A DNA stretch of 64,000 bases from Streptomyces misionensis (GTDB lineage Bacteria; Actinomycetota; Actinomycetes; Streptomycetales; Streptomycetaceae). The stretch covers positions 6,757,001 to 6,821,000 of the forward strand of contig NZ_FNTD01000004.1 of NCBI RefSeq assembly GCF_900104815.1, given 5' to 3'. The notes below the pieces were generated by a model. The model was given only the letters and a program-made list of their open reading frames with translations. It did not search any database and had not been told where the DNA came from. Shown in pieces: positions 1,019 through 15,703 of this stretch; position 1 is the first letter of the stretch, and each line of letters starts with the position of its first letter. Position numbers and translations under genes: made by a program.

Positions 1019-2662
1019 TCAACTCAGGTTCCACCGCTGGTTGTCCTGTCCGTTGCAGGTCCACAGTTCGGCCAGCGCACCGTTGGCGGTGGAGCCGCCG
1101 GTGACGTCCAGGCAGAGTCCGGACTGGACCCCGGTGATGGTGCCGTCGGAGTTGATCCTCCACTGCTGGTTGGTCTGGCCGTTGCACTGCCAGATCTCCA
1201 CCTTGGTGCCGGGCGCGGTCTGGTTGTCGTAGGCGTCAAGGCACATCTGGGAGCTGCCCGAGTAGACGGTCAGCTGCTGGGAGGAGGTGTGCGTCCAGAG
1301 CTGGTTGGCTCCGCCGCCGCAGGTCCAGATCTCGACCTGGGTGCCCGCGGTGGTGGCCGAGTCGGGTACGTCCAGGCACTTGCCGGCGCCCACCGCGTGG
1401 ATCTCGCCGGTGGCATCCCCGCCTCCGGTGCTGCTGCCACCGGCGACCCGGTACATGACCACCCCATGCGCCGGGACCGACGCGCTGATCGTGCCGGAGG
1501 TGGTCGATGTCGCCCCGGACCACAGGTCGGTCAGCGTGTAGCCGGCGGCGCCGGTCTTGCCGACTGCGTTCGCGGTGGTGCTGATGGTCGCGGTCGACCC
1601 GGTCTCGTTGAACAGGACGACGGACACGTCGCCGTTCGCGAGCGGTTTGGCCAGGACGTCCAGGCCGTTCGAGGAGGACACCATGGTTCCCTGCCTGCCC
1701 AACGAGTCCTGGTCCACCGCGATCACACGGGAGTTGGTGTAGGTGGCCAACGTGGCGGAGGAGGCGGAGGTCAGGTTCGTGCCGGCGATGAGCGGGGCCG
1801 CCATCTCGGCCCACAGGCTGAACTCCGAGCGGGCCTCGGTGTCCGACAGGCCGCTGTTGCCGACCTCCAGCATGTCCGGGTCGTTCCAGTGGCCGGGGCC
1901 GGCGTAGGAGGCCAGACCCACGTTCGAGTGGAAGATCGAGAGCATGCTGGAGTAGCTCGCGGTGATGTCCCCGGTGGTGCGCCAGCTGTTGCCGACGTTC
2001 GCGCCCCAGGTCCACACGTTGTCCTGGCCCCAGTTGCACAGGCTGTACAGGATGGGCCGGCCGGTCGCGGCGAGGGCGTCGCGCATCGCGGTGTAGCGGG
2101 TCTGCGCGGCCACTCCGTTGTTGTTGCAGTTGTCGTACTTCAGGTAGTCGACGCCCCAGGAGGCGAAGGACTGGGCGTCGGTGGTCTCGTGACCGAGACT
2201 GCCGGGGTAGCCGGCACAGGTGGCGGTGCCGGCGTCCTCGTAGATGCCCAGCTTGAGACCGAGCGAGTGGACGTAGTCGGCGGTCCCCTTGATGCCGTCC
2301 GGGAACTTCGCCGGATCGGGAACCAGCCGGCCCGAGGAGTCCCGGGAGTGCGTCATCCAGCAGTCGTCGATGTTGACGTACGTGTAGCCCGCCGCCTGCA
2401 TGCCGTTGGTGTGCATCGCCTGCGCGGTGGACTTGATGAGCGACTCGGAGACGTTGCAGCCGTAGGCGTTCCAGTCGTTGAACCCCATCTGCGGCGTCAG
2501 CGCCAGGCCGTTGCCCAGCGCGGCCGCGGGCTGGGCCGTACCGACAGCGAGCAGGGGGAGCGCGAACGCGAGAAGGGCGCCGGCCGCTGTGAGCGCTAAC
2601 ATCCGCGACCGGCGCGCCAGATGGCGCAGCCTTCGTCGTGCGGGGGGAATGTGTGCGGGCAT
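1019..2662 (-). CDS. Secreted alpha-galactosidase, GH27 with C-terminal ricin-type lectin domain
   Basis: 547 aa, ATG at 2662 with GGAGG (2677-2673) ten bases upstream. Residues 1-49 are an export signal (RRSRMLALTAAG, hydrophobic core, AAA cleavage). GH27 catalytic domain at about 50-330: MGFNDWNAYGCN, IDDCW, GLKLGIYEDAGTATC, nucleophile D177 in YLKYDNC, acid/base D232 in WRTTGDI, and WNDPDMLEVGN. A beta-sandwich linker follows, then a CBM13/ricin-B domain at about 415-547 with QxW-type repeats NQLW, NQQW and NQRW. It should release terminal alpha-galactose from plant galactomannan or raffinose-type sugars outside the cell. Codon 22 is TTA (2597-2599), in the signal peptide, as in the neighbouring arabinofuranosidase gene. 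Confidence 0.95.
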   Translation of the reverse strand: MPAHIPPARRRLRHLARRSRMLALTAAGALLAFALPLLAVGTAQPAAALGNGLALTPQMGFNDWNAYGCNVSESLIKSTAQAMHTNGMQAAGYTYVNIDDCWMTHSRDSSGRLVPDPAKFPDGIKGTADYVHSLGLKLGIYEDAGTATCAGYPGSLGHETTDAQSFASWGVDYLKYDNCNNNGVAAQTRYTAMRDALAATGRPILYSLCNWGQDNVWTWGANVGNSWRTTGDITASYSSMLSIFHSNVGLASYAGPGHWNDPDMLEVGNSGLSDTEARSEFSLWAEMAAPLIAGTNLTSASSATLATYTNSRVIAVDQDSLGRQGTMVSSSNGLDVLAKPLANGDVSVVLFNETGSTATISTTANAVGKTGAAGYTLTDLWSGATSTTSGTISASVPAHGVVMYRVAGGSSTGGGDATGEIHAVGAGKCLDVPDSATTAGTQVEIWTCGGGANQLWTHTSSQQLTVYSGSSQMCLDAYDNQTAPGTKVEIWQCNGQTNQQWRINSDGTITGVQSGLCLDVTGGSTANGALAELWTCNGQDNQRWNLS

Positions 2663-3194: not shown

Positions 3195-4256
3195 GTGAGG
3201 ACGGCGGGGGAAGAGGGGCTGGAGGCCTCGCGGGTCGCGGAGGTCCTGGTGGCGGGGCAGGGCGGTCCGCCGGGGCGGCGTGGGTCCGGGTACCGGGTCG
3301 GGGAGCGCTGGGTGCTGACGGCCGCGCATGTCGTGGCGGGCCGGGAGGCGGCGGTGCGGGTCCGGTTCGACGCGGACATGCCGGGGGAGTGGGGTGCCGA
3401 CGCCCGGGTGGTGCTGTGCGCCCCGGCCGCCGATGTGGCGCTGCTGGAGATCACGGCCGTACCGGACGGCCGGGGCGCCGTCGAGCCGCCCCGTTACGCC
3501 GCCGTGCCCGACGAGGACGTGGTGCTGGCCTTCAGCGCGATGGGGTTCCCCCGCTTCAAGCTGCGGGAGGACGCCGGGGACGGCGCGCCCGGCCGGTACC
3601 GGGACTCCTGCCATGTCGCCGGCTCGGTCTCCGTGCTGTCCAACCGCCGTGAAGGGACACTGGAGTTGGCGGTCGCGGTGCCGCCCGGTGACAGCGAGCC
3701 GCACCGCTCCCCCTGGGAGGGCATGTCGGGCGCGCTCGTGTGGTGCGGGGGCGCGGTGATCGGCATGGTGGGCGCGCACCACCGGTCCGACGGCCTGGGC
3801 AGGCTCGCGGCGGGCCGGGTGGAGCGCTGGTACGACGCGCTGGCCCCGGCCGAACTGGCCCTGCTCCGGCGCTGCGCCGGGCTGCCCCCGCGCGAGGCGC
3901 TCGGCACCGCCGACGGAAGCACGGGACGCCGCCCGGTGACCGGCCTCGCGGGGCTGCCCCCCGACCTTCCGCTGCGTGAACTGGCCGAACTGGTGGACGC
4001 GTTGACGGCCGTACCGGCACTGCGCGGCGGCAACGGCATGGGGCTCGTCCTGGACGGCATCAGCGACCGGGTGGCGGCCAACAGTCCCCGCGACCCCCGG
4101 CTGCGGATGGACGTCTACGGCATCGTGCGCACCTGTCTGCGCTATCCCGGCACCCTCGATCAACTCCTGGAAGCCGTACGCCTGCTGGAAGGCCCCTCGG
4201 TCGAGATGGACCGGGTGGACGACGCGGCGGCCCGGCTCGCCCGGCGCCGCGGCTGA
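3195..4256 (+). CDS. Trypsin-like serine protease with C-terminal effector-associated domain (EAD2-like)
   Basis: 353 aa, GTG start with AGAGGA 5 bases upstream. No signal peptide, so cytoplasmic. Residues 10-235 form a chymotrypsin-fold protease: H45 in LTAAHVV, D80 in AADVALLEI, S178 in EGMSGALV (GMSGA replaces the usual GDSGG). Residues about 250-345 (LPPDLPLRELAELVDAL to LLEAVRLLEG) look like the small helical effector-associated domain found in NTP-dependent conflict systems of multicellular bacteria, where such domains pair an effector with a partner carrying the same domain. A similar region begins the VMAP-type protein at 10784-12268, so the two may interact. In those systems the protease is thought to be an effector released on infection or stress; that role is inferred here. 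Confidence 0.85.
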   Translation: MRTAGEEGLEASRVAEVLVAGQGGPPGRRGSGYRVGERWVLTAAHVVAGREAAVRVRFDADMPGEWGADARVVLCAPAADVALLEITAVPDGRGAVEPPRYAAVPDEDVVLAFSAMGFPRFKLREDAGDGAPGRYRDSCHVAGSVSVLSNRREGTLELAVAVPPGDSEPHRSPWEGMSGALVWCGGAVIGMVGAHHRSDGLGRLAAGRVERWYDALAPAELALLRRCAGLPPREALGTADGSTGRRPVTGLAGLPPDLPLRELAELVDALTAVPALRGGNGMGLVLDGISDRVAANSPRDPRLRMDVYGIVRTCLRYPGTLDQLLEAVRLLEGPSVEMDRVDDAAARLARRRG

Positions 4257-4350
4257 CTCGAACTCGCGGGCCCCGACAGGTCGCAGGGTTGCGGGCCGTG
4301 CGGCGCTGGGTCATGCTGGTCGAGACATCGGTAATGCATAACTCGTAGGT

Positions 4351-4548
4351 ATGGGAGGGGACTTGGCAGCCGTGGAGCATCCGATGCCTGCCATCGAGTC
4401 CGGCCTCGTCGATCTCTCGGGCATCTCCCTCGAAACACTGCGCTCCATGGAGGGCGGCACGTTCACCGAGTCTCTGGAGCAGCTGCTGCACCACATCGAC
4501 GGCCCGCAGGCCATCACGGTGTCATACAGCCCGTCCCGCTTCGACTGA
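4351..4548 (+). CDS. Small FxSxx-type RiPP precursor-like peptide with atypical C-terminus
   Basis: At most 65 aa. The start is unresolved: ATG 4351; GTG 4372 (11 bases after GGGAGGGG at 4353-4360); or ATG 4384 (6 bases after GGAG). The segment ESGLVDLSGISLETLRSM through LEQLLHHI resembles the leader region of FxSxx-COOH precursors as I remember them. The tail ends YSPSRFD and lacks the FxSxx-COOH motif that gives the family its name. It sits 36 bases upstream of the HExxH enzyme gene, the usual place for the substrate of that enzyme class. I infer a precursor whose last 10 or so residues (TVSYSPSRFD) are modified. An alternative is a small regulatory partner. Confidence 0.7.
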   Translation: MGGDLAAVEHPMPAIESGLVDLSGISLETLRSMEGGTFTESLEQLLHHIDGPQAITVSYSPSRFD

Positions 4549-4584
4549 GCGACGAGGTGATCAGCAGGGTGCTGTGGGGGACAC

Positions 4585-6441
4585 GTGGCCGCTGATGCCA
4601 CGACCACGGGGGAACAGACGGGGGAACACCTCCCGTTCCACCGGCTTTCGGCAGCAGGTGTCCGGGCCCTCGCCCACGGCGAGGGCGACGGCACGGTCAT
4701 CGCGGAACTGCTGCGCGCGGAACGCAGCCGCAGGCTCCTGCTGCTGAGGGCGCTGCGCAACGGACTCGACCGGGGCGGCGCGCGACCGCAGGACCTGGCC
4801 TGGTTCGCCGAGGCCTGGGACCTGCTGGAACACGCCCAGCGGCAGGCGCCCGAGGTGTGCGAGGACGTGCTGATGTCCCCGAACACCGGCATGTGGGTCT
4901 CGCTCGCGGTGCGCCGCATCCGGGGCCGGCCCTACGAGAACGCGCCGCACTGGGTGGTCCTCGGCCATCTGGCGGCGCTCGCGGCGGCGGTCGCGGCACG
5001 GGCCGGGCTGGACTTCTCCATCACCGTGCCGGTGCGGCGCGGACTGGTGCCGCTGCCCACCCTGGGCTGCGCGGTGCTGGACGCCCCCGAGCCCTGGGGC
5101 ACCGCGAGGGTCACCGGACGCGAGGGGCGGCTGTGGGTCACCGGGGCGGCCGGCGAGGTCGAGGTCCCCGCCGACCGGGAGCGGCACGGACGGGACTGGA
5201 TACCGGTGCGCCGCACGACGCTGGAGACCGGGGCACGGGCCAAGACCGTTGTGCTGGAGGAGCTGGACCCCTACCGGACGTTCCCCCACCCGAGCGAGCC
5301 CAGCCTGCTGTCCCCGACCGAGGCGGCCCACTGGGAGTCGCTGCTCGCCGAGGCATGGCGGATGCTGCTGCGCGACGAGACGGGGAGCGTCGAGGCGATG
5401 CGGACCGGCCTGATGTCGGTGGCGCCGACACCCAGGAGAGAAAGGTTTCGGCCGCACAGCAGCACGGCCGGTGACGCGTTCGGCGGGGTCACGGCGTCCC
5501 GGCCGGACGACGCCGCCCAGCTCGCCGCGACCCTGGTGCACGAGTTCCAGCACACCAAGCTGGGCGCCCTGATGCACCTGGAGCCGCTGAGCGAGGCGGC
5601 CGACCCCGAGGGGCCGGACACCCTGCTCTACGCCCCCTGGCGCGACGACCCGCGCCCGCTCGGCGGACTGCTCCAGGGCATCTACGCCTTCTTCGGCGTC
5701 ACCCGCTTCTGGCGCGCCCACCGGCACAGCGCCGACCCGGCCTACGCGCCCCTCGCGCACTTCGAGTTCGCGCTGTGGCGCGCCCAGGTGTGGGCCGCGC
5801 TGACCACGGTGCGCGGACACGAGCGGCTGACCCCGCTCGGGCGGTACGTGGTCGAGTGCCTGACCGAACGCTGCGCCGAGTGGATGGCCGACGAGGTGCC
5901 CGCGACGGAGCTGCGCCTGGCGCGGGAGGCCGCGGACGACCACCGGGCCCGCTGGCGGGCCCACCATCTGCGGCCCCCGGCCGAGGCGGTGGAGGCGGCG
6001 GTCCGCGCCTGGCACCGCGGCGATCCCCGCCCGCCGACCGCCCTCGCGGCACCGCCCCTGCTGGTCCCCGACACCGCGGTCCGCTTCATGGACGGCGCCG
6101 CCGTCCTGGCCCGGCACCGGCTCGGCGATCCGGACGGGGCCTGGCGCGACCCCGGGGGAGCCCGGGCGGTGGCGGGAGCCGACGCGGCCGAGGTCCTGCT
6201 GGCCCGCGACGACCACACCGGAGCGCGCGCCGCGTTCACCGCCCGGCTGTCGGGCGGGGACGCACCCGTGTCCGCCTGGCCCGGCCTGGGCCGCGCCCTC
6301 GCGCACGACCCCGCCCACCAGGCCGCCGCCCGGCTGCTCCTGCTCCACCCCGAACGCGCCCGCGCCGTCCACGACGCCCTGCGAACACCGGCCGGCCACC
6401 GCGTGGACCCGGTACGCCTGGCGTCCTGGCTGGGCGCCTGA
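4585..6441 (+). CDS. HExxH-motif peptide-modifying enzyme (aKG-HExxH peptide beta-hydroxylase family)
   Basis: 618 aa, GTG start after GGGGGA. The family hallmark HEFQH is at residues 319-323 in TLVHEFQHTKLGAL, followed by a helical region with FEFALWRAQVWAALTTVRGHERLT. This architecture and length match the HExxH proteins encoded beside FxSxx-type precursor peptides, first called putative peptide modification proteins and later described as alpha-ketoglutarate/iron-dependent peptide beta-hydroxylases (recalled, not checked). The C-terminal 130 residues are alanine-rich and variable. It is likely co-transcribed with the small peptide just upstream. The radical-SAM partner (FxsB) common in such clusters is absent from this window, so hydroxylation may be the only modification. 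Confidence 0.85.
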   Translation: MAADATTTGEQTGEHLPFHRLSAAGVRALAHGEGDGTVIAELLRAERSRRLLLLRALRNGLDRGGARPQDLAWFAEAWDLLEHAQRQAPEVCEDVLMSPNTGMWVSLAVRRIRGRPYENAPHWVVLGHLAALAAAVAARAGLDFSITVPVRRGLVPLPTLGCAVLDAPEPWGTARVTGREGRLWVTGAAGEVEVPADRERHGRDWIPVRRTTLETGARAKTVVLEELDPYRTFPHPSEPSLLSPTEAAHWESLLAEAWRMLLRDETGSVEAMRTGLMSVAPTPRRERFRPHSSTAGDAFGGVTASRPDDAAQLAATLVHEFQHTKLGALMHLEPLSEAADPEGPDTLLYAPWRDDPRPLGGLLQGIYAFFGVTRFWRAHRHSADPAYAPLAHFEFALWRAQVWAALTTVRGHERLTPLGRYVVECLTERCAEWMADEVPATELRLAREAADDHRARWRAHHLRPPAEAVEAAVRAWHRGDPRPPTALAAPPLLVPDTAVRFMDGAAVLARHRLGDPDGAWRDPGGARAVAGADAAEVLLARDDHTGARAAFTARLSGGDAPVSAWPGLGRALAHDPAHQAAARLLLLHPERARAVHDALRTPAGHRVDPVRLASWLGA

Positions 6442-6476
6442 CGCTTTCCGCGCGCGTGGCCGTCCGGCTCGGGCGA

Positions 6477-6491
6477 GCCCCGGCCCGGGGC
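6477..6491. terminator. Possible bidirectional terminator between convergent genes
   Basis: GCCCCGG-C-CCGGGGC is a perfect inverted repeat in the 139-base gap between the HExxH gene (plus) and the NB-ARC/TPR gene (minus). It is short with a tight loop, so the assignment is tentative. Confidence 0.35.
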
Positions 6492-6580
6492 GGCCGCCGC
6501 GACCACCGGGGCCGGGCGCGGTCCCGTGACCGTGCCCGGCTTCCGTCACGCAGGCCGGCGGGGCACCGCCCCGCGCGGGC

Positions 6581-9500
6581 TCACAACGGCAGCGGGTCGA
6601 TGTCGCAGTTGGCTCGCTGACGGTCGCGGAACTGCACCGTGGCCGGGTGGCGGGTGCCGGAGTCGGACTGGAGGCGGGGGGCGTCCAGCACCCGTTCCAT
6701 GCGGGTCAGGGTGTCCTCGCGCAGCGCCGCGCACGCGGCGTCCTCGCCCACCGCGAGGAGGTCCAGCGACAGGTTGGCCGCGCAGGCCAGCGTCGTCGGG
6801 TGGTCCTCGCCGTACGCGACCCGGCACAGGGCCAGGGTGTCCTCGCCCCGGCGCCGCGCCTCCTCGGGCCGGCCCAGCGCGGCGAGGTCGCTCGCCAGGT
6901 TGATGGCGCAGACGAGGGCCAGCGGGTGCCCCGCGCCGAGCCCGTCGGCGAGCGAGCCGAGCGCCGCCTCGTCCAGCCGCCGCGCCTCCTCGGGCTGCCC
7001 GAGCAGTCGCAGGGTGACGGCGAGGTCGACGTCCGCGGACAGGACGTGCGGGTGGTGCGGGTCGTAGATCTGCCGGTAGCCCTCACACGCCTTGACGCCC
7101 CGGGTGCGGGCGGCCTGGAGATCGCCGTTCTGCCGCAGCGCCATCGACAGGGCCAGCGCCGCGGCCAGCGACTGCGGGTGCGTCTCGCCGTACCGGCGGG
7201 TGAACTGGGCGTACGCTTCCGTGGCCAGCTCCAGCGACCGCGCGTGGTCGCCGGCCTTGCGGGAGGACTCGCTGAGCTGCCGCTTGGCCTCGATGGTGGC
7301 GGGGTTGCCCTGACCGAAGACGTCCTGGTAGGCGCTGAGCATGGACTCGTGCAGCGCGCGCGCACCGACGTAGTCCCCGGTCTCGCGCACGTCGATGGCC
7401 ACGTGGTTCTCGGAGTGCAGCGTCCGCCGGTCCTCCCGGCCGTACAGCCGCAGCTTCAGCGACAGGGTCCTGCGGTCGAGTTCGAGGGCCCCCTTGAAGT
7501 CACCGACCAGGCGCAGGCTCACACAGAGGTTGTGGGCGATGTTGAGCGTGGTCGGGTCGTCCTCGCCGAACGCCCGGTGCGCCCGCTCGTACGCGGTCCG
7601 GTCCAGCTCCGCGGCGGTGGCGAACCTGCCCTCCACCCGGCGTACGGCCGCCTCCAGCTGGAGTGCGTCGAGGGCGTCCTCGCGGTTGTCCTCGCCGTCG
7701 GCGGGGGCGGTGCGCTCGTACACCTCCCTGAGGTGGAGCACCAGCCGGGCCGCGTCGTCGAACCGGCCGACCACCCAGTACATGAAGCACAGCCACTGCC
7801 CCATCAGCAGCGTCTGCTGGTCCTCCTCGCCGAAGATCTCCAGCCAGGCCCGCCACGCCTGCTCGGAGAAGTCCAGCGACACGTCGTGGTCGCCCCACCA
7901 GTACAGGTACTGGGCGATGTTGTGCACGAGCTGCCGTACCCAGGGCTGGTCCGAGCGGATCGCGTCGGCGGCGATGACATGGCTGTACAGCTCCGCGTAC
8001 CGGGGCCAACTCGTCGGCTCCATCGGTGCCTTGGGGTCGGCGGCGGCCAGCAGGGTGTGCGCCCCGTGGCGCATCCGGACCTGCTCCTCGGGCGTCATCC
8101 GGTTGTTGAGGACGAGCTGCACCAGGCGGTGCATCTCGATGGAGTTGGTCCGGTGGTCGATCCGGGCCAGCGAGTAGCGGTTCACCTCTCTTATGGCGCG
8201 GGCCAGCCGGATCGGGTCGTTCAGCGCGGCGTCCAGCTCGGGGAAGATGCTGCTGTTGCCGAGGCCGGAGAAGATCGACCGGGAGATCGGGTCGGGCGCG
8301 AAGTAGGAGCACAGCTGGAGCAGTCGCAGCGCGGCGGGGCTGCGGGTCTCCAGGTGGTCGAGGGAGACGTTCCAGGCCGCGGCGACGGGCAGTTGGTAGT
8401 CCGGCGGCGGGGCGACCTCGAGGAGTTCCATCCGCTTGCTCTCGAACAGCCGCAGGTACTCGGAGGCGGGCATCCCGGTCTCCGCCCGCCAGGCCGCCGC
8501 CTGTTCGAGGGCGAGCGGCAGGTCGCCGAGCGCCTCGGCCAGCGCGTCCGCCTCCTCGTCCCGCAGCGGGGGCCCCGAGCGGCGCAGCAGCTCCTTGCTC
8601 TCCTCACGGGTGAACACGTCCACCTCGAGGGAGCCGCCCACCTGCCCCCAGCGCCGGTTGCGGGAGGTCACCAGGATGGTGCCGTGGCCGCCCTGCGGGA
8701 AGTAGTGGCGCACCTGCTCGGGGTTGTCGGCGTTGTCGAAGATGAGCAGCCAGCGGGCGTACGGCCGGCCCTCGCGCAGCGCCTCCCGGACGGCGGGTCC
8801 GGCGATGTTGGCCTCGGTGGTCGTCACCAGGCCCAGCCGCTGCGCCAGTTCCACCAGGGCCTGGCCGATCTGCCCGGGCCGCTCGGAGGGGATCCACCAC
8901 ACGACGTCGTACTCGGACTGGTGCCGGTAGGCGTACTCGATCGCGAGCTGGGTCTTGCCGACACCGCCCATCCCGTGGATCGCTTCCGGCAGCACCGTGG
9001 TGGTGCCCTCCCGCAGCCGCTGGTCGAGCAGCTCCAGCAGGGCGTCGCGTCCGGTGAAGTTGGGGTTGCGCGGCGGCAGGTTCCCCCAGACGCGCGGCTG
9101 CGCGGTGCGCTCTCCCTCCACGGTCTCCTGGTGCGGTGTCGGCATCGATGTGGCTCCTTCGGAAACGGTCCGGGATTCCGGCTCGGCGGCGTGTCCTGCC
9201 GCCGCCGAGGCCGAGGCGGGGGGCACGGATCCCGTGGACGTGCGTAACGGCTTTTCCAGGCTGACTGCGTATCGCCGATCGTGCCAGCTCAACACCTTGG
9301 CCAACATGGCGGCACGCTGGTCGTAGCGCCCCGACAGCGCGCGCAGAGCGGTCAGCTCCACACGGAGGAAGGCGATGTTGCGGCTGTTGACGCGGGGCAT
9401 CGCCAGGGTGTCCAGTGGTTCGTCCGGGGAGGGCAGCAGGGCACGGTCCGTCCCGTCCCCCGCCAGTAACCCCCGGACGTCGTACAGCACTCGTGCGGTG

Positions 9501-10510
9501 GCGCTGCGGCGCCCCAGCGCGAGCAGTTCCTCGCGGACATCGGGGGCGAAGTCGAACAGCACGTCGGCCGGGCCGTCGCCGCTCGCCGGGACGGGCCGGG
9601 CCAGTCCGCTCATCAGCAGTTCGCAGACGTGCACCGGGCCGGCGTCCGGGGTGGCCGCGACCACGGTTTGGATGACGGGCAGGCTGAGCGGCGCGGCGGC
9701 CAGCCGGGTGGCGAGGGTGAACGCCGTGGGGCTGGCGGCGGCCCGGAAGTCGGAGACCCGGTCGGCGGCGGGCACGGGGCTGTGCGGATCGGGCACGTCC
9801 TGCGCCCAGGGCAGCGCGCGGGCCGCGTCCGGCCTGCTCTTCCACTCCCGCGCCGGTACGGCGGACAGGTCCAGCCACTCCGGTTCGGCGCCGGACACCA
9901 GCCGGGCCAGCGCGGCGGCCCAGCGCTCGGTCAGGGCCAGCACGGGGACGACGACGGGGGCCGCCCCCTCCGCCCCGGTCCCGGCCACGCCCGCCGCGTC
10001 CGCCGGGGCCTCCCGCTCCGCCCAGCACCAGGCGCTGTTGGCCACCCAGGGGCGGGGGGCCCGGATGCGCACCCGGTACACGTCGAGGCCGGTGCGGAAC
10101 CACAGGTGCGGGGGCAGCATCTGCACCACGGCGACCGGCTGCGCCCGCCCCCAGTCGCGCAGCAGCGGATGCACCGTGCCCAGCCGCCAGCCCGTGGCGA
10201 TGCCGTCGGTCAGCACCAGCACCACCCGGCGCGCGTCCGCGGGCGCCGGGCCGAGCGGCTCCTCGGCGCACACCTGCGACGGGTCCGTCTCGTCGGTGCC
10301 CAGCAGCCGCACCACCCGCACCCGGCCGAACCGCCCCGCCCGCTCCAGTTCCCGGACCAGATCGTCCTCGACCGCTTGGTCCCACACCCGCATCGTGGGA
10401 TGCGCGTCGACGACGAGCACCGCCTCGGCGGCCTCCCGCCCGAGCCGGCTCAGCACACGGGCGGCCTCCCGGCGGGCCCGTTCCGGTCGCTGTTCGTCGT
10501 CATCGTGCAT
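6581..10510 (-). CDS. SAV_2336-like N-terminal domain / NB-ARC NTPase / TPR protein (FxSxx-COOH system TPR type)
   Basis: 1309 aa from the ATG at 10510 (MHDDDEQRPERARREAARVL). A longer frame continues upstream, but its sequence is low-complexity. N-terminal 450 residues resemble the SAV_2336-type domain (VLVVDAHPTMRVWDQ, VLVLTDGIATGWR). NB-ARC follows: Walker A GMGGVGKT near residue 510, Walker B LLIFDNADN near 588, TILVTSRNRRWG, LPLALEQAAAW. From about 800 to 1290 it is TPR repeats (for example AFGEDDPTTLNIAHNLCVSLR, about 42-residue period). It is a STAND-type ATP switch: a ligand on the repeats should trigger assembly. In related systems it accompanies the peptide and HExxH genes, which are convergent here. 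Codons 348 (9467-9469) and 422 (9245-9247) are TTA, so bldA control is likely. Confidence 0.9.
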   Translation of the reverse strand: MHDDDEQRPERARREAARVLSRLGREAAEAVLVVDAHPTMRVWDQAVEDDLVRELERAGRFGRVRVVRLLGTDETDPSQVCAEEPLGPAPADARRVVLVLTDGIATGWRLGTVHPLLRDWGRAQPVAVVQMLPPHLWFRTGLDVYRVRIRAPRPWVANSAWCWAEREAPADAAGVAGTGAEGAAPVVVPVLALTERWAAALARLVSGAEPEWLDLSAVPAREWKSRPDAARALPWAQDVPDPHSPVPAADRVSDFRAAASPTAFTLATRLAAAPLSLPVIQTVVAATPDAGPVHVCELLMSGLARPVPASGDGPADVLFDFAPDVREELLALGRRSATARVLYDVRGLLAGDGTDRALLPSPDEPLDTLAMPRVNSRNIAFLRVELTALRALSGRYDQRAAMLAKVLSWHDRRYAVSLEKPLRTSTGSVPPASASAAAGHAAEPESRTVSEGATSMPTPHQETVEGERTAQPRVWGNLPPRNPNFTGRDALLELLDQRLREGTTTVLPEAIHGMGGVGKTQLAIEYAYRHQSEYDVVWWIPSERPGQIGQALVELAQRLGLVTTTEANIAGPAVREALREGRPYARWLLIFDNADNPEQVRHYFPQGGHGTILVTSRNRRWGQVGGSLEVDVFTREESKELLRRSGPPLRDEEADALAEALGDLPLALEQAAAWRAETGMPASEYLRLFESKRMELLEVAPPPDYQLPVAAAWNVSLDHLETRSPAALRLLQLCSYFAPDPISRSIFSGLGNSSIFPELDAALNDPIRLARAIREVNRYSLARIDHRTNSIEMHRLVQLVLNNRMTPEEQVRMRHGAHTLLAAADPKAPMEPTSWPRYAELYSHVIAADAIRSDQPWVRQLVHNIAQYLYWWGDHDVSLDFSEQAWRAWLEIFGEEDQQTLLMGQWLCFMYWVVGRFDDAARLVLHLREVYERTAPADGEDNREDALDALQLEAAVRRVEGRFATAAELDRTAYERAHRAFGEDDPTTLNIAHNLCVSLRLVGDFKGALELDRRTLSLKLRLYGREDRRTLHSENHVAIDVRETGDYVGARALHESMLSAYQDVFGQGNPATIEAKRQLSESSRKAGDHARSLELATEAYAQFTRRYGETHPQSLAAALALSMALRQNGDLQAARTRGVKACEGYRQIYDPHHPHVLSADVDLAVTLRLLGQPEEARRLDEAALGSLADGLGAGHPLALVCAINLASDLAALGRPEEARRRGEDTLALCRVAYGEDHPTTLACAANLSLDLLAVGEDAACAALREDTLTRMERVLDAPRLQSDSGTRHPATVQFRDRQRANCDIDPLPL

Positions 10511-10783
10511 GAGTGCTCTCAAGGCGCCGAAGTGACGGTGAGAGTGCGGTGGAGTCCCGCAGACTCCAGGCATGCGTGACATCCACGGACCAAGCCTCGC
10601 AGCGCGGGCACCCCCGAAGCAAGGACGCATGGAGGCTCGCGCGCGGTGCACGCCACGGCACGGCGGGAGCAGGAAGGCGGACGCGGAAGGGACCGGGGCC
10701 GGTGGATTCACGCTGGTGCATGTCGGGCACCCCCACTCACGACGCGCGGACGGTCGAAGGCCGCCGGGGCCCGGCCGGCCGCG

Positions 10784-12268
10784 TCACGGCTTCACCGGCG
10801 CGTGGGCGGGACCCGGCGGCTCGGGCTTGCGCTCGGGATCGTCGAACAGGATCGCCAGATGGCGTCCCACATGGTTGTCCCACCCCTCCGGCCCCATGGC
10901 CAGTGCCTCCTTGCGCCAACGTCCGGTCCGCTCCAGCAGCCCGGACAGTCCCCGGTCCTGCACGATGTCGGCCACCGCTTCCTTGAAGGCCGGGTCGGAG
11001 CAGTCGCCGCGGTGCCAGATCATGGCCGGCACGCCCGCGCGCAGGGCCGCCAGGTACTCCTGCCGGCCGGCCCCGGAGTCCGTGCCCGGCGGCTCGCTGA
11101 GCACCAGGCAGACGGCCTGCTCGTCCTCCTTCAGCTCCCGTTCCAGATGGAAGTGGGAGTGGCCCGGGCGGTTCCAGTACGAGTGGGTGTCCGCCGGACG
11201 CTCCTTGTACTGGCGCCACTTGTTGTGCCAGGGGCGGTGCCACGCGGCCTTGCGCAGGCGTTCGAAACTGCGGACGAGGACCGTGTAGTCCATCACCAGC
11301 GGAGTGGGCGAGCCGGAGTCCGCCTCCTTGTGCCACCACTCGACCGGCTCTCCCAGCAATTCCCACGGAAGGATGAATTCGAGTACGACGGGTTGCCGCA
11401 GATCCGACCAGCGTTCCTCGGTCTGCTCGATGAGCGTGTCCACCTTGGCCGGCAGTTCGTCGCGGTGCAGGTGCAGCGTCTGTCCGGGAATGGGGTGCCA
11501 GCCCTCGGCGTCCGACTGCCGCCAGTGGGAGAGGTAGTACCGGTCGGGATCCACCCCGTCCGGCTCGAACTGGATCATCAGATAGGCCGGCATCGGCGTG
11601 GTCTGCGGCTCGGCGACGGCCCCGAGCCGCCACTCGGCCATCTGGTCCTCGAGATTCCAGACGCGGGCCTGGGCGCGGTTCCAGCGGCGCAGCCGCTCGG
11701 CGGCCTCCCGCTGTCCGTCCTCGACCAGCTGGTCGGCGGCCAGCGACAGGAACGCCATGCTCACGGGCAGCTCCCGCGCCGCCGAATTGCCGCCGGCCAG
11801 GCGTAAGAACACCGCCCAGCCGGTGTCGCACCAGGGGGGCAGCTCCTGGGTGCGCGAGCGGCTGGCCCGGCGCGCCATCGCCGCCAGCGTGGCCGCGGAG
11901 CGCAGTTCCATCAGGTCCGGGCGCAGCGGGTGCAGATCGGCGCCGTCGAAGAAGTCGACCGCCTCCCACTCGTCCACCAGGCGGCGCAGCGCCAGCACGG
12001 TGACGGACTGCTGCTCCACATAACCGAGGCAGCGCACCAGGCAGGGCAGTCCGTCGGGGACCCCCGCGCAGCTCTCCACGAGGCGCAGCAGATAGGGGCG
12101 CAGCGTCCCGTTCCCCAACGGCTCGACGGGCGTGCCCAGTTCCTGGCTCAGCATGGTCACCAGCAGATCGGCACTGGCCGGGTGCCGCAGGGTGGCCGAT
12201 TCCTGGAGCACGTCGACGACACCGGCCACCAATTCGTTGCGAACCCGCGCGGGGTTCCGTCCTTCCAC
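10784..12268 (-). CDS. VMAP-type conflict-system protein (effector-associated domain plus VMAP-C)
   Basis: 494 aa, GTG start with GGAGG 8 bases upstream. Residues 1-100 (ELVAGVVDVLQESATLR, LRPYLLRLVESCAG, VRCLGYVEQQSVTV) look like an effector-associated domain related to the C-terminus of the protease at 3195-4256. The remainder, with LVMDYTVLVRSFERLRKAAWHRPWHNKW, VCLVLSEPPG and LRAGVPAMIWHRGDCSD, matches the vWA-MoxR-associated protein C-terminal (VMAP-C) region. In published classifications VMAP links a sensor NTPase with an effector in three-part conflict systems; here the candidates are the NB-ARC/TPR protein and the protease. Codon 155 is TTA (11804-11806). It lies 273 bases upstream of the NB-ARC gene on the same strand; that gap holds no gene. 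Confidence 0.85.
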   Translation of the reverse strand: MEGRNPARVRNELVAGVVDVLQESATLRHPASADLLVTMLSQELGTPVEPLGNGTLRPYLLRLVESCAGVPDGLPCLVRCLGYVEQQSVTVLALRRLVDEWEAVDFFDGADLHPLRPDLMELRSAATLAAMARRASRSRTQELPPWCDTGWAVFLRLAGGNSAARELPVSMAFLSLAADQLVEDGQREAAERLRRWNRAQARVWNLEDQMAEWRLGAVAEPQTTPMPAYLMIQFEPDGVDPDRYYLSHWRQSDAEGWHPIPGQTLHLHRDELPAKVDTLIEQTEERWSDLRQPVVLEFILPWELLGEPVEWWHKEADSGSPTPLVMDYTVLVRSFERLRKAAWHRPWHNKWRQYKERPADTHSYWNRPGHSHFHLERELKEDEQAVCLVLSEPPGTDSGAGRQEYLAALRAGVPAMIWHRGDCSDPAFKEAVADIVQDRGLSGLLERTGRWRKEALAMGPEGWDNHVGRHLAILFDDPERKPEPPGPAHAPVKP

Positions 12269-12398
12269 CCCCGTGACCTCCGATCGCCACCAGCCGCCAG
12301 TCCGTACCCGGTGACGGTGCCGACCAGCGTACGGCCACTGCTCCCGCCACGTCAGGGTGTCGGGGGCGCACGGCGAACGCGCCGCCCCGGCGGTCCGG

Positions 12399-12707
12399 TC
12401 AGCGCTCCCCCTCGTCTTCCTCCCCGGAGATCAGCACCTTTATCTGTGTCCCGTCCGGAGTGACCAGTTTCGGGTGCAGGGTGAGGCGGATCCGCTGGGT
12501 GCGCGAGGTCTCCAACCGGCCGTCGGCCCCGGCCTCGACCACCCAGAAGCGCACCTTGCCGCTCGCCCCGCCCTTGCGGCCCACCACGACGTCCGCCTCG
12601 ATCTCCACCGGTCCGAGCTCGAACCGCACCGCACCGGTCGGTCCCTGGGTCAGGGCGGCGTCCAGTTGCTGGCTCAACTCCCGGATCATTTCAGCGAGTT
12701 CGATCAC
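12399..12707 (-). CDS. Trypsin-co-occurring domain protein (trypco2 family)
   Basis: 102 aa, GTG start (MIELAEMIRELSQQLDAAL). The pattern AVRFELGPVEIEADVVV, GKVRFWVVEAGADG and TQRIRLTLHPK is the full trypco2 domain: an N-terminal helix and a beta-rich body. These small proteins are encoded near trypsin-like proteases with effector-associated domains and are thought to be protease partners, substrates or activators. Its protease would be the gene at 3195-4256. It is first in a minus-strand run trypco2, VMAP, NB-ARC/TPR (130 bases before VMAP). No TTA codon. The C-terminus is acidic (SGEEDEGER). Confidence 0.88.
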   Translation of the reverse strand: MIELAEMIRELSQQLDAALTQGPTGAVRFELGPVEIEADVVVGRKGGASGKVRFWVVEAGADGRLETSRTQRIRLTLHPKLVTPDGTQIKVLISGEEDEGER

Positions 12708-12796: not shown

Positions 12797-12817
12797 TATA
12801 ATCCACCGATTCGGTGG
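12797..12817 (+). promoter_or_regulatory. Candidate promoter -10 with adjoining operator palindrome
   Basis: TATAAT (12797-12802) is directly followed by CCACCGA-T-TCGGTGG (12803-12817), a perfect inverted repeat with 7-base arms. It lies where transcription would begin, 21 bases before the ATG of the oxidoreductase gene. A repressor bound here could block initiation, or the RNA could form a 5' hairpin. No clear -35 was seen. Confidence 0.5.
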
Positions 12818-12837
12818 ACAACCCCGCGGAGGTACGA

Positions 12838-14814
12838 ATGGTCGACGCGCACGGACGTGAGCCTCTGAAGCTGGTCGTGGTCGGGGCGGGCGCCTCCGGG
12901 ATCCTGACCGCCGTCCATGTCGCCGAGGAGGCCGCACGGACCCGCGCGCCGGTGGAACTCACGCTGGTCGACCCCGGTCCGCGGGACGCCGCGGGCGTGG
13001 CGTTCTCCACCGCGAACCCGCGTCACCTGCTCAACGTGCCGGCCGGCGGCATGAGTTGCCTGCCCGACCGGCCCGACCACTTCGTCCGCTGGCTGGTCCG
13101 CGAGCGGATGCCCACCGCGACCGGGCGGACCTTCGCGCCCCGCCGCCACTACGGCGACTACCTCCTCGCCACTCTCGCCGCCCGCGTCGAACGCGCCCGC
13201 GGCCCGCTCGCCTTCCGGCGCCGGTCCGCCCGTGCCGTGGCCTGCTCGGTGCACGGGGGACGGGCGCGGGTACGGCTGTCCGACGGGGCCTGGCTGACCG
13301 CCGACGCCGTGGTGATCGCCACCGGCCCACTGGCCGGCCGGGCATCCTGGGCGCCCGCAGAGCTGCGGGAGTCCGGACGGTTCGTGACCGACCCCTGGGC
13401 GCCCGGCGCGCTCGACGGACCGCTCGCGGACGGCCGGGAGGTCCTGCTGGTCGGCGCGGGCCTGACCGCCGTGGACGTCGCCCTCGCGCTGGACCGCCCG
13501 GGACGCACCGTGCACGCCCTGTCCCGGCACGGAAGACTGCCCCGGCGCCACGCCCTCGTCCCCCTGCCGCCGATGGCCCCGGCCGAGCCGCTGACGGGGC
13601 TGCCGCTGTGCCAGCTGCGCCCGGCCGTGCTGCGGCACATCCGGCGCGTGACGGACGAACTGGGCGACTGGCGGCCGGCGTTCGACGGCCTGCGCCCGCT
13701 GGTCTCCCGGCTGTGGGCCGGACTCGACGACGAGGAGCGGGCGGAGTTCCTGCGCAGCCACCGCCACCTCTGGGAGATCCACCGGCACCGGATGGCGCCC
13801 GAGACGGCCGAGACCGTCACCCGGCTGCGCACCGCCGGGCGGCTGCGCCTGCACACGGGCGAGGTCACGGCGGCCCGGCGGGACGGCGACGTGCTCACCG
13901 TGACGGTCACCGGCTCCCGGGAACTCGGCGCGGGCTGGGTGGTGGACTGCACCGGCCAGGGCCTGCGGGTCGTCGAGTCCCGTGACCCCCTGCTGAGCTG
14001 CCTGGTCTCCTCCGGGTTGGCCCTGCCCGGCCCGCTCGGGATCGGGCTCGCCACCACCGCCGAGGGGCGGCTGCGGGCCCGGGACGGAGCCGTCGTGCCG
14101 CTGTGGACGCTGGGCGCGCACCGGCGCGGCGACCTCTGGGAGAGCACCGCCGTACCCGAAATCCGGGAGCAGGCAGCCGCGTTGGCGCGGACGTTGCTGA
14201 AGTCCCGTTCGACGGCCACACGTGCGATCGCGCGTGCCGAGCGCGCCCGTCCGGTGCCGGTGCCCGCCCGGCCGGGGGCCACGGTGTGGCTGACCGGGCT
14301 GCCCGGCGCGGGTACGAGCGGCATCGCCGCCGAACTGGCCGCGCGCATACGGGCCGAGGGCCACCGGGTGGAGGTCCTGGACGGTGACGAGATCGGCGCG
14401 GGCCTCCCGGCGGGACCCGCCTCCGTTCGCGAGGACCGGGATGCGCGTGTACGGCGGGTCGGCATGGTCGCGGAGGTGCTCGCGCGCAACGGCGTCATCG
14501 TCCTGGTGCCGGACCGCGCGCCCGGTCGCGGCGCACGGGACGGCGTCCGGCTGCGTCACGACCTCGCCCGCGTCCCGTTCCTGGAGGTCCACGTCGCCGC
14601 GCCCGTGGCGGCCCCCGCCGCCCGGGAGGCCGGAAGTCCCCACACCCGGCGGGCGGCGGGCGCACCGGCCGGCGCGGCGGGCGTGACCGGCCTGGCCGAC
14701 GACCCGTACGAGCCGCCGGACTGCCCGGAACTGCGGCTGGAGTCCCACTGGCGGACCCCCGCCGAGTCGGCGGACGCGGTGCACGCCCTGCTCACCGAAC
14801 GGGGGCTGTTCTGA
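12838..14814 (+). CDS. FAD/NAD(P)-binding oxidoreductase fused to a degenerate APS-kinase domain
   Basis: 658 aa. The ATG at 12838 is chosen because GGAGG lies at 12828-12832; a GTG at 12814 is in frame but inside the operator palindrome. Residues 10-470: FAD-binding NAD_binding_9-type oxidoreductase with GAGASG near residue 17, RHLLNVPAGGM, VVIATGP, a second nucleotide site LLVGAGLTAVDVALAL, and DCTGQG. Residues about 478-658 are an adenylylsulfate (APS) kinase fold (VWLTGLPGAG, VEVLDGD, REDRDARVRRVGMVAEVLARNGVIVLV, DDPYEPP, AVHALLTERG). Its P-loop reads GLPGAGTSG, with Thr in place of the essential Lys, and the APS-binding loop is replaced by APGRGARDG. The kinase part is therefore probably inactive and may serve as a binding or regulatory domain. 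The substrate is unknown. Confidence 0.85.
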   Translation: MVDAHGREPLKLVVVGAGASGILTAVHVAEEAARTRAPVELTLVDPGPRDAAGVAFSTANPRHLLNVPAGGMSCLPDRPDHFVRWLVRERMPTATGRTFAPRRHYGDYLLATLAARVERARGPLAFRRRSARAVACSVHGGRARVRLSDGAWLTADAVVIATGPLAGRASWAPAELRESGRFVTDPWAPGALDGPLADGREVLLVGAGLTAVDVALALDRPGRTVHALSRHGRLPRRHALVPLPPMAPAEPLTGLPLCQLRPAVLRHIRRVTDELGDWRPAFDGLRPLVSRLWAGLDDEERAEFLRSHRHLWEIHRHRMAPETAETVTRLRTAGRLRLHTGEVTAARRDGDVLTVTVTGSRELGAGWVVDCTGQGLRVVESRDPLLSCLVSSGLALPGPLGIGLATTAEGRLRARDGAVVPLWTLGAHRRGDLWESTAVPEIREQAAALARTLLKSRSTATRAIARAERARPVPVPARPGATVWLTGLPGAGTSGIAAELAARIRAEGHRVEVLDGDEIGAGLPAGPASVREDRDARVRRVGMVAEVLARNGVIVLVPDRAPGRGARDGVRLRHDLARVPFLEVHVAAPVAAPAAREAGSPHTRRAAGAPAGAAGVTGLADDPYEPPDCPELRLESHWRTPAESADAVHALLTERGLF

Positions 14815-14935
14815 GGGGCCGCGGCACACGTTCCGCGGGCGCCTCGCAAGGGGCGCCGGGCGCGGCTCCACCCTCGGCCGGACGTCACATACCGGCCAGC
14901 GATCGTGGCATATACCGGCCGAAAGATTGACAAGC

Positions 14936-14964
14936 CATAACTCACCTGTTTTTCCCTGCGTTTA
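14936..14964 (+). promoter_or_regulatory. BldN-like promoter for the chaplin gene
   Basis: CATAAC (14936-14941) and CGTTTA (14959-14964) are 17 bases apart. They resemble the sigma-BldN consensus as I remember it (-35 CGTAAC, -10 CGTTNA), the sigma factor that drives chaplin genes during aerial growth. A TTGACA at 14927-14932 overlaps this region but has no matching -10. Confidence 0.5.
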
Positions 14965-15013
14965 CCTTCACGCGGGCGAGCGCCCGCGATCAAGTCTGGA
15001 AGGCAGGGAACCT

Positions 15014-15703
15014 ATGAAACGGGTTACCCGAAACGGTGTGATCGCCCTCGCGGCCGCCTCGGGCGCGATGGCTCTGGCCGGGACGGCGTACGCCGACTCC
15101 ACAGCGGACGGGGCCGCGGTCGGCTCGCCCGGGCTGATCTCCGGCAACGGGATCCAGCTTCCGGTGCACGTCCCGGTGAACGTGTGCGGGAACACCGTGA
15201 ACGTGGTGGGGCTCCTCAACCCCGCGATGGGCAACAGCTGCGCCAACAAGGGCGGCACCGCCACCAAGGGCCACGAGGGCGGTTCCACGACGGGGGGCGG
15301 AGCCACGGCCGCCGGAGTGGAGAAGGGCTCGCCGGGTGTCGTCTCCGGCAACGGCATCCAGTTGCCGGTCGACCTGCCGGTCAACGTCAGCGGCAACACC
15401 GTGGACGTGGTGGGGATCGGCAACCCCGTCTTCGGGAACCACTCCGAGAACACGTCGAGCACCCACTCCACCCCGCCCGTCACACCCCCGCGGAGCACTC
15501 CGCCGGTGCACTCCAAGCCCCCGGCCCGCCCCCAGGCGCCCTCGGTGCCGGAGCCCGCGCCGTCCGTGGCCGTGCACCAGCCGACGGGCGCGCTCGCCCA
15601 GACCGGCGCCGACGGCACCCTCACGGCCGCCGTCACCGGCGCCGCCTCCCTGATCGGCGGCGCGGCCCTGTACCGGCGCTTCCGCCCCGGCGCGTCGCGC
15701 TGA
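15014..15703 (+). CDS. Long chaplin with two chaplin domains and LAxTG sortase signal
   Basis: 229 aa; the ATG at 15014 gives a clean signal peptide (residues 1-27, cut after AYA). Chaplin domain 1 at 37-79 (GSPGLISGNGIQLPVHVPV) has the usual two cysteines, Cys58 and Cys76. Chaplin domain 2 at 105-147 has Ser126 and Ser144 at the matching places and no cysteine. A Pro/Ser/Thr-rich wall-spanning linker runs 148-190, then LAQTG (194-198), a membrane segment about 203-220 and a basic tail RRFRPGASR: a class E sortase anchoring signal. Long chaplins are attached to peptidoglycan and help shorter chaplins form the amyloid sheath of aerial hyphae. The upstream BldN-like promoter fits developmental expression. 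Confidence 0.95.
   Translation: MKRVTRNGVIALAAASGAMALAGTAYADSTADGAAVGSPGLISGNGIQLPVHVPVNVCGNTVNVVGLLNPAMGNSCANKGGTATKGHEGGSTTGGGATAAGVEKGSPGVVSGNGIQLPVDLPVNVSGNTVDVVGIGNPVFGNHSENTSSTHSTPPVTPPRSTPPVHSKPPARPQAPSVPEPAPSVAVHQPTGALAQTGADGTLTAAVTGAASLIGGAALYRRFRPGASR

What the first reader, a model, noticed from the sequence alone, without database searches (positions are those of the whole stretch)
3195..12707. Combined RiPP and NTPase conflict cassette
Six genes bring together parts usually described separately: trypsin-like protease with effector-associated domain, trypco2 protein, VMAP protein, and a SAV_2336/NB-ARC/TPR protein (conflict-system parts), plus a small FxSxx-like peptide and an HExxH peptide-modifying enzyme (RiPP parts). 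Layout is plus-strand protease, peptide, enzyme, facing minus-strand trypco2, VMAP, NB-ARC. Seen: motifs and gene order. Known: these families co-occur in conflict systems and FxSxx-COOH loci. Inferred: the NB-ARC/TPR protein senses a trigger, VMAP and effector-associated domains relay it, and the modified peptide is a signal or sensor ligand.
Basis: partly seen in the sequence, partly recalled or inferred. Interest (0 to 1): 0.85.

Follow-up and report, generated by a model that had tools for sequence, protein, structure and literature searches.

The report
Peptide-linked conflict cassette without its motor
Six neighbouring Streptomyces genes form a known type of predicted bacterial immune-like system built around a small modified peptide, but this version lacks the AAA+ motor protein that the published model of such systems puts at their core.

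Summary
The six genes are real: trypsin with EAD2; a 65-aa peptide; an HExxH enzyme (TIGR04267); a SAV_2336/vWA–NB-ARC–TPR protein; EAD2–VMAP; Trypco2. The combination is already described: Kaur et al. 2020 report peptide-processing genes in VMAP 'ternary' systems, and the peptide, ending SRFD, fits their RxD type, not FxSxx. NB-ARC/TPR and VMAP accompany the HExxH gene in 61 of 62 long related loci. What I did not find described: the MoxR AAA+ ATPase, a defining component, is missing here and in 42 of 83 scorable cassettes, with five changes on each of two gene trees. The vWA protein's N-terminal extension is detected in 0 of 42 MoxR-less and 33 of 41 MoxR-bearing loci; seven intermediate loci carry MoxR with altered catalytic motifs. 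Eleven genomes with a MoxR-less cassette show no VMAP-type MoxR at E 1e-20. Likely working, untested: the NB-ARC switch does the motor's work, the EAD2 pair recruits the trypsin, and the HExxH enzyme oxidises the peptide.

The parts
3195..4256 (+). Trypsin-like serine protease with C-terminal EAD2 (353 aa)
   Evidence: Pfam Trypsin_2 2.8e-9, EAD2 1.7e-22; triad positions H in 34 of 34, D in 33 of 34, S in 33 of 34 trypsin-type loci, window included
4351..4548 (+). Precursor peptide (65 aa), leader part ESGLVDLSGISLETLRS, C-terminus SYSPSRFD (RxD type)
   Evidence: peptide profile hits in 94 of 110 loci, window included, listed; dN/dS 0.28-0.63
4585..6441 (+). HExxH enzyme (618 aa), predicted alpha-ketoglutarate/Fe peptide oxidase; motif HEFQH
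   Evidence: TIGR04267 1.3e-49; solved sequence relatives 22nu/22ob and 8s5f ChlH
6581..10711 (-). vWA(SAV_2336)-NB-ARC-TPR protein as the longest ORF; true start probably near 10510 (inference)
   Evidence: NF041121 2.7e-70, NF040586 9.4e-262; NB-ARC, DUF7779, TPR; AlphaFold2 model of aa 68-536, pLDDT 84
10784..12268 (-). VMAP: EAD2 + VMAP-M0 + VMAP-C (494 aa)
   Evidence: Pfam 2.4e-18, 1.1e-25, 9.6e-52
12399..12707 (-). Trypco2, trypsin-co-occurring protein (102 aa)
   Evidence: Pfam 8.7e-25

Best explanation
The cassette is a motor-less derivative of the RxD-type, peptide-linked VMAP conflict system. SHOWN: gene content, domain identity, conservation as a unit, absence of MoxR, and a pattern of repeated MoxR absence that goes with absence of the vWA N-terminal extension. 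INFERRED: (1) the HExxH enzyme binds the peptide's LVDL leader and oxidises its C-terminal SYSPSRFD core (beta-hydroxylation, or oxidative trimming at the RxD end). (2) The modified peptide stays in the cell and is a ligand or guard of the vWA-NB-ARC-TPR protein. (3) When the trigger perturbs that state, the NB-ARC domain, the only NTPase domain found in this cassette, switches and oligomerises, doing the conformational work given to MoxR in ordinary ternary systems. (4) This passes to VMAP, whose EAD2 recruits the trypsin through EAD2-EAD2 contact; with Trypco2 it is switched on and cleaves cell proteins, stopping growth or killing the infected cell. My own split: identity 0.95, repeated MoxR loss 0.9, steps 1-4 together about 0.35.
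For: Domains; unit kept in 61 of 62 long loci; RxD type and AP-ATPase/TPR-to-vWA fusion as described by Kaur et al.. MoxR absent in 42 of 83 loci; 5 changes on the NB-ARC tree and 5 on the VMAP tree, in both the least forced by starred branches. VMAP-vWA gap bimodal: 36-469 bp without MoxR, 1112-1841 bp with it. vWA N-terminal extension detected in 0 of 42 MoxR-less and 33 of 41 MoxR-bearing loci. Walker A and B intact in 37 of 37 scorable extension-bearing loci, one or both altered in 7 of 9 extension-less ones. No VMAP-type MoxR at E 1e-20 in 9 of 38 genomes reached through named MoxR-less loci or in G051 and G019. EAD2 pair exclusive in the genome. Two relatives without detected vWA and MoxR keep VMAP, NB-ARC/TPR, HExxH, peptide and Trypco2. 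Trypsin triad kept in nearly all trypsin-type loci. Solved HExxH relatives.
Against: No functional data. In L077, the nearest relative, no protease gene was found and its genome has a single EAD2, so the trypsin is not indispensable there or that cassette is decaying; 7 of 42 MoxR-less loci have neither EAD2-effector type that I profiled. 30 of 41 genomes with a MoxR-less cassette have a VMAP-type MoxR elsewhere, so help in trans is not excluded there, the window genome included. The extension profile was grown from a MoxR-bearing locus, and the room between the upstream gene and the vWA metal site overlaps between the two groups (29-182 codons, median 129.5, without MoxR; 42-272, median 194, with), so a diverged extension could be missed. 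Independent pairs for MoxR versus extension: 3 same, 0 opposite, 2 ties in most pairings, too few for significance. L128 and L069 have intact MoxR motifs without a detected extension. 47 of 110 detected peptides do not end in RxD or RD.
Confidence: 0.5

Rival explanations
1. An ordinary VMAP ternary system whose MoxR is borrowed from another VMAP system in the genome (window genome: MoxR about 4 Mb away, in a Trypco1 / trypsin-VMAP / MoxR / vWA-like gene row).
For: The window genome has that MoxR with intact Walker motifs; 29 of 38 other genomes searched have a VMAP-type MoxR too.
Against: 11 genomes have none at E 1e-20 (9, 2); the vWA N-terminal extension is undetected in all 42 MoxR-less loci; MoxR decays in place in relatives; Kaur et al. 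argue for cognate partners from congruent trees.
Confidence: 0.15
2. A RiPP natural-product cluster: the modified peptide is exported as an antibiotic or intercellular signal and the NTPase genes regulate or protect.
For: HExxH enzymes of this family act in RiPP clusters; 13 Streptomyces loci plus L132 and L146 have two peptide and two HExxH genes.
Against: None of the six genes matches a transporter family, and the two adjacent genes scanned are an alpha-galactosidase and a FAD/APS-kinase fusion; transporters further off were not looked for. Genes of conflict-system families make up the rest of the unit in most relatives.
Confidence: 0.2
3. The HExxH protein is a zincin metallopeptidase that simply cleaves off the C-terminal peptide, as Kaur et al. 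assumed in 2020.
For: HExxH motif; PflC shows proteolysis when the leader is missing (abstract and discussion of PMC12636437).
Against: The family profile is now named alpha-ketoglutarate peptide beta-hydroxylase; a solved relative is ChlH of Chlorogloeopsis (8s5f), by its name the HExxH part of ChlBH, which the preprint describes as such an oxidase (the link of the names is my inference).
Confidence: 0.15
4. A developmental or stress switch of multicellular actinobacteria rather than phage defence, with the same protein mechanics.
For: One large Streptomyces clade carries it; PADLOC gives only weak protease matches (Avs1b 1.9e-5, HamA 3.8e-4).
Against: EAD2 effectors of at least two unlike kinds and repeated component loss look like conflict-system evolution.
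Confidence: 0.25

Closest known systems
VMAP ternary conflict system with RxD-type peptide-processing genes (Kaur, Burroughs, Iyer, Aravind 2020, PMC7159879)
   Same: VMAP-C, vWA protein fused to AP-ATPase(NB-ARC)-TPR, HExxH gene, peptide ending RxD, EAD2 on VMAP and on a neighbouring protease, Trypco2 with trypsin
   Different: No MoxR AAA+ ATPase and no detected vWA N-terminal extension; HExxH read here as an oxidase rather than a peptidase
FxSxx-COOH system (NCBIfam TIGR04267, TIGR04269, NF040586; precursor family TIGR04268 as named in the finding)
   Same: HExxH enzyme and NF040586 TPR protein
   Different: No FxSxx C-terminus, no radical SAM FxsB above cut-off in the genome
PflC/PosC alpha-ketoglutarate HEXXH enzymes, which oxidatively cleave a C-terminal ARMD (PMC12636437)
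   Same: HExxH enzymes acting on a substrate whose C-terminus has the form xRxD
   Different: Pseudomonas clusters; the gene list given for pfl has no VMAP or NB-ARC. There the Ala of ARMD is decisive, whereas in 61 distinct RxD/RD-type peptides here the residue before R is mostly Q (20) or S (15), A in 2
Second VMAP system in the same genome (L158)
   Same: VMAP-C with a trypsin and a Trypco partner
   Different: Has intact MoxR (P0008), Trypco1 instead of Trypco2, trypsin fused to VMAP, no EAD2, no tblastn hit to peptide or HExxH in the 16 kb

Membership tests
VMAP ternary system | VMAP with VMAP-C domain | tested here: met
   PF20028 9.6e-52
VMAP ternary system | vWA component with two metal-binding Asp at the ends of strands 1 and 4 | tested here: met
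   NF041121 2.7e-70; AlphaFold2 alternating alpha/beta model with D35 at the end of strand 28-35 and D102 just after strand 94-101. Weak by sequence: CoxE vWA profile P 9e-4 but probability 23%, Pfam VWA_CoxE in 2 of 60, no PDB profile hit; fold search never ran
VMAP ternary system | MoxR AAA+ ATPase between VMAP and vWA genes | tested here: not met
   VMAP-vWA profile gap 289 bp and no MoxR profile hit in the first 20 kb of the window; the one MoxR match in the genome is near the other VMAP
VMAP ternary system | EAD on VMAP with a second copy on a signalling enzyme encoded nearby | tested here: met
   EAD2 on both, the only two in the genome
RxD-type peptide-processing system (Kaur 2020) | small precursor ending in RxD | tested here: met
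   ...SPSRFD; RxD or RD within five residues of the end in 63 of 110 detected peptides
RxD-type peptide-processing system (Kaur 2020) | AP-ATPase with TPRs fused to the vWA protein | tested here: met
FxSxx-COOH system | precursor with C-terminal FxSxx | tested here: not met
   C-terminus RFD; no match in NCBIfam
FxSxx-COOH system | radical SAM FxsB | tested here: not met
   TIGR04269: no hit over cut-off in the genome
alpha-ketoglutarate HExxH peptide hydroxylases (TIGR04267) | family profile and conserved HExxH and PWRxDxRP motifs | tested here: met
   168.6 bits against cut-off 40; motifs in A1 and in 22nu/8s5f; taking PWRxDxRP as a family mark is my reading
alpha-ketoglutarate HExxH peptide hydroxylases (TIGR04267) | Fe/alpha-ketoglutarate-dependent oxidation of a peptide | not testable with these tools
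   needs biochemistry

The most novel reading that the evidence does not exclude
In peptide-linked VMAP systems, oxygen- and alpha-ketoglutarate-dependent peptide oxidation plus a fused NB-ARC switch has displaced the AAA+ motor on at least five occasions. The oxidised or trimmed RxD peptide is itself the sensed ligand: its C-terminal Asp would sit in the metal site (MIDAS) of the vWA domain, as Asp of RGD does in integrins (integrin parallel recalled, not from a call), so loss of the modification or of the peptide frees the sensor. Hint only: both MIDAS Asp are kept in 37 of 42 MoxR-less loci, and the five exceptions, one Micromonosporaceae clade, also have a different peptide tail. Against: many loci with intact MIDAS have peptides without RxD; L149 has lost the second Asp yet keeps an RxD peptide; L114 and L134 keep RDE-ending peptides without a detected vWA domain.
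Probability: 0.1. Interest if true: 0.85.

Novelty: new variant of a known kind. Interest (0 to 1): 0.58.

Why it matters
The published model treats MoxR, vWA and VMAP as a constrained trio. A large natural set of cassettes that keep VMAP and the peptide machinery but lack MoxR (and, in two cases, a detectable vWA) says that in this branch the motor is dispensable and the NB-ARC/TPR-peptide module is the constant. It offers a compact, testable system, with relatives at each stage of motor decay. It also joins recent enzymology of HExxH peptide oxidases to a predicted immune module for whose peptide I found no tested role.

Tried and rejected
FxSxx membership: rejected (C-terminus, no FxsB). 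Longest-ORF VMAP (10737-12371): rejected, wrong frame. 'RxD is a PflC-type cleavage tag': kept only as a possibility, since Ala before R is rare here. 'RxD binds the vWA MIDAS': no general correlation. vWA by PDB sequence profile: no hit. 'Caspase-like' for the other EAD2 effector (L036, L120): my label by eye; Pfam finds only the EAD2 in them, so the report calls them a second, unnamed kind. Literature for MoxR-less VMAP systems: the searches and the parts seen of PMC7159879 (sections 8, 9, 24 and passages), PMC8195603 (passages) and PMC10907252 (passages) showed none. Supplements could not be read, so absence from print is not shown. PMC10907252 reports loci that keep MoxR but lack vWA or VMAP, a different reduction. 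Searches were searches on the HExxH enzymes.

Rows dropped or doubtful: of 110 loci, 27 lacked a scorable VMAP or vWA gene (ends of the DNA held, or true absence) and were left out of the 83. L039 and L055 are cut inside MoxR and were not scored for Walker motifs. For L119 and L123 only the altered Walker B was seen in the alignment; Walker A was read for L118. The L134 VMAP fusion has no Pfam trypsin hit, and that of L114 is below the gathering score, so these fusions are tentative.
Full report
WHAT IS THERE. The window lies in an 8.47-Mb genome of five contigs; the nearest named relative in the collection searched is Streptomyces misionensis (91% HExxH identity; 97% NB-ARC/TPR identity). Six genes fill 3195-12707. 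On the plus strand: a trypsin-like protease with C-terminal EAD2, a 65-aa peptide, an HExxH enzyme. On the minus strand, read from the right: Trypco2, a VMAP protein with N-terminal EAD2, and a vWA(SAV_2336)-NB-ARC-TPR protein. The VMAP frame is 10784-12268. The peptide is a real gene: its profile hits 94 of 110 loci, window included; a loose leader pattern of the VDL type is in 105 of 107 distinct peptides; dN/dS is 0.28-0.63 in nine comparisons.

IT IS A RECURRING UNIT. Of the 62 with at least 21 kb of DNA, 61 also encode NB-ARC/TPR and VMAP; the exception is L124.

IT IS KNOWN IN KIND. Kaur et al. 2020 (PMC7159879; sections 8, 9 and 24 read, plus passages) describe VMAP ternary systems (VMAP, then MoxR, then vWA, order strictly kept). 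They state that about 20% of the actinobacterial ones are associated with a zincin-like gene and a small peptide; FxSxx, RxD and acidic peptide types go with VMAP systems, and in the RxD and acidic types an AP-ATPase with TPRs is fused to the vWA protein. The window fits the RxD type except that MoxR is missing.

WHAT DIFFERS: NO MoxR. The one VMAP-type MoxR found in the genome (E 1e-5 or better), with intact Walker motifs, sits beside a second VMAP about 4 Mb away, with a Trypco1 gene, a trypsin-VMAP fusion and a vWA-like protein that has a sub-threshold HAD match. MoxR is absent from 42 and present in 41. The VMAP-vWA gap is bimodal, 36-469 bp against 1112-1841 bp, and no weaker MoxR profile hit hides in the 42. 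On the NB-ARC/TPR tree the state needs five changes, and starred branches force five; the VMAP tree gives five as well, though it carries long-branch warnings. Both are 'quick' trees. The trees do not tell gain from loss; loss is inferred because MoxR belongs to the described class as a whole and because decaying copies exist.

STEPWISE DECAY. A profile of the vWA protein's N-terminal extension, grown from L036, is found in 33 of 41 MoxR-bearing loci and 0 of 42 MoxR-less ones. A caution: the room for it, from the upstream gene's end to the metal-site Asp, is smaller without MoxR (median 129.5 codons, range 29-182) than with it (median 194, range 42-272) but overlaps, so a diverged extension could be missed. 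Across the 48 loci with any MoxR, 37 of 37 scorable ones with the extension keep Walker A (GK[ST]) and Walker B (DE); two more are cut by the end of the stretch. Of nine without the extension, seven have altered catalytic motifs: the Walker A lysine replaced in L112, L136, L118 and L145, and the Walker B glutamate in L118, L119, L123, L140 and L145, with changes also in what I take to be sensor-1 and the arginine finger; L128 and L069 are intact. L118/L119/L123/L140 are the sisters of MoxR-less L041, and L112/L136 of the MoxR-less Actinoplanes group. This reads as uncoupling, then inactivation, then loss. The independent-pairs test has only five pairs (3 same, 0 opposite, 2 ties in most pairings) and cannot be significant.

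NOT SIMPLY IN TRANS. G051 and G019, which hold MoxR-less cassettes, have no VMAP-type MoxR at E 1e-20, while the six MoxR-bearing genomes searched beside them do. Of 38 further genomes reached through MoxR-less loci, nine have none, among them all four Micromonospora of that group (L108 was not held and not searched; completeness of these genomes is not given). The other 29 have one elsewhere, as has the window genome, so borrowing is possible there.

FURTHER REDUCTION. L114 and L134 (two Streptomyces) have no detected vWA domain either. Their NB-ARC/TPR ORF has 129 or 69 residues before the NB-ARC part, and VMAP carries what looks like a fused N-terminal trypsin (Pfam 2.1e-4 in L114, below gathering; only my own profile in L134) next to Trypco2. 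If right, the fusion is natural support for the idea that EAD2-trypsin and EAD2-VMAP act as one. EAD2 was counted in seven genomes. The window genome and those of L078, L082, L109 and L120 have two each, lying in the cassette stretch; that of L095 has four, two in each of two such loci (L095, L140); that of L077 has one, and its protease gene was not found (with places compared). Stand-alone trypsin effectors occur in 31 of 42 MoxR-less and 0 of 41 MoxR-bearing loci; a second kind of EAD2 effector, whose other part Pfam does not name, occurs in 4 and 7; seven MoxR-less loci have neither. The trypsin type is thus largely one clade's choice, not a consequence of MoxR loss.

THE ENZYME. The HExxH protein is a solid TIGR04267 member. 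The alignment A1 matches the solved 22nu/22ob (E 7.3e-79) and 8s5f, ChlH (1.2e-20), with the PWRxDxRP motif kept. Recent preprints (PMC12636437: abstract, introduction, first results and discussion read; PMC13060819: passages) show HExxH enzymes to be alpha-ketoglutarate-dependent oxidases of Asp, His, Phe, Gln or Pro in RiPP precursors. One pair, PflC/PosC, oxidatively cleaves a C-terminal ARMD. The 2020 label 'metallopeptidase' should therefore probably be revised for this cassette. Which residue is oxidised is unknown; a core of the form [YFH][NSQ]P-x-R recurs in 31 of 61 distinct RxD/RD-type peptides.

THE vWA DOMAIN. Sequence evidence alone is weak. An AlphaFold2 model (mean pLDDT 84, pTM 0.82) alternates strands and helices, with Asp35 closing strand 28-35 and Asp102 just after strand 94-101, as expected of a vWA metal site. 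No fold search could be run. Both Asp are kept in 37 of 42 MoxR-less and 39 of 41 MoxR-bearing loci, so the site outlives the motor.

VERDICT. A real, conserved, six-gene cassette of a described class, and a new variant of it in lacking the AAA+ motor, with an evolutionary series behind it. The mechanism is inference.

Noticed in passing
L093-L096, L098-L104, L106, L107; also L132, L146: Two HExxH genes and two peptide genes per locus (15 loci); in the 13 Streptomyces ones the extra peptide lies upstream on the opposite strand and mostly ends like GYNPQRDE, close to those of vWA-less L114/L134.
   Followed up: partly
L077: Closest relative of the window cassette; the trypsin-EAD2 gene is not found, and an alpha-galactosidase gene ends some 0.7 kb before the peptide.
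   Followed up: partly
window 1019-2662 (-) and L041 57-2279: An alpha-galactosidase (melibiase) gene borders the cassette both here and in the distantly placed MoxR-less L041; of 109 other loci only L077, L041 and, over 127 residues, L120 match it at E 1e-20. A shared insertion site is possible.
   Followed up: partly
window 12814-14814 (+): Fusion of a FAD/NAD(P)-binding domain with an APS-kinase domain in one ORF; among 109 other loci only L077 matches.
   Followed up: no
window 14927-15703 (+): Chaplin-type gene: two ChpA-C stretches, 8.7e-49. Relatives lie in L077-L081.
   Followed up: partly
L120, L121, L129, L144, L147, L133: Second vWA metal-site Asp changed to His or Gln in a Micromonosporaceae clade whose peptides also have a different, longer tail; L133 still has MoxR.
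   Followed up: partly
G000:C4 near 7304000 and G000:C3 near 16600: Two further TIGR04267 genes in the genome, one on a 203-kb contig, with no hit to the cassette parts in the 20 kb around.
   Followed up: no
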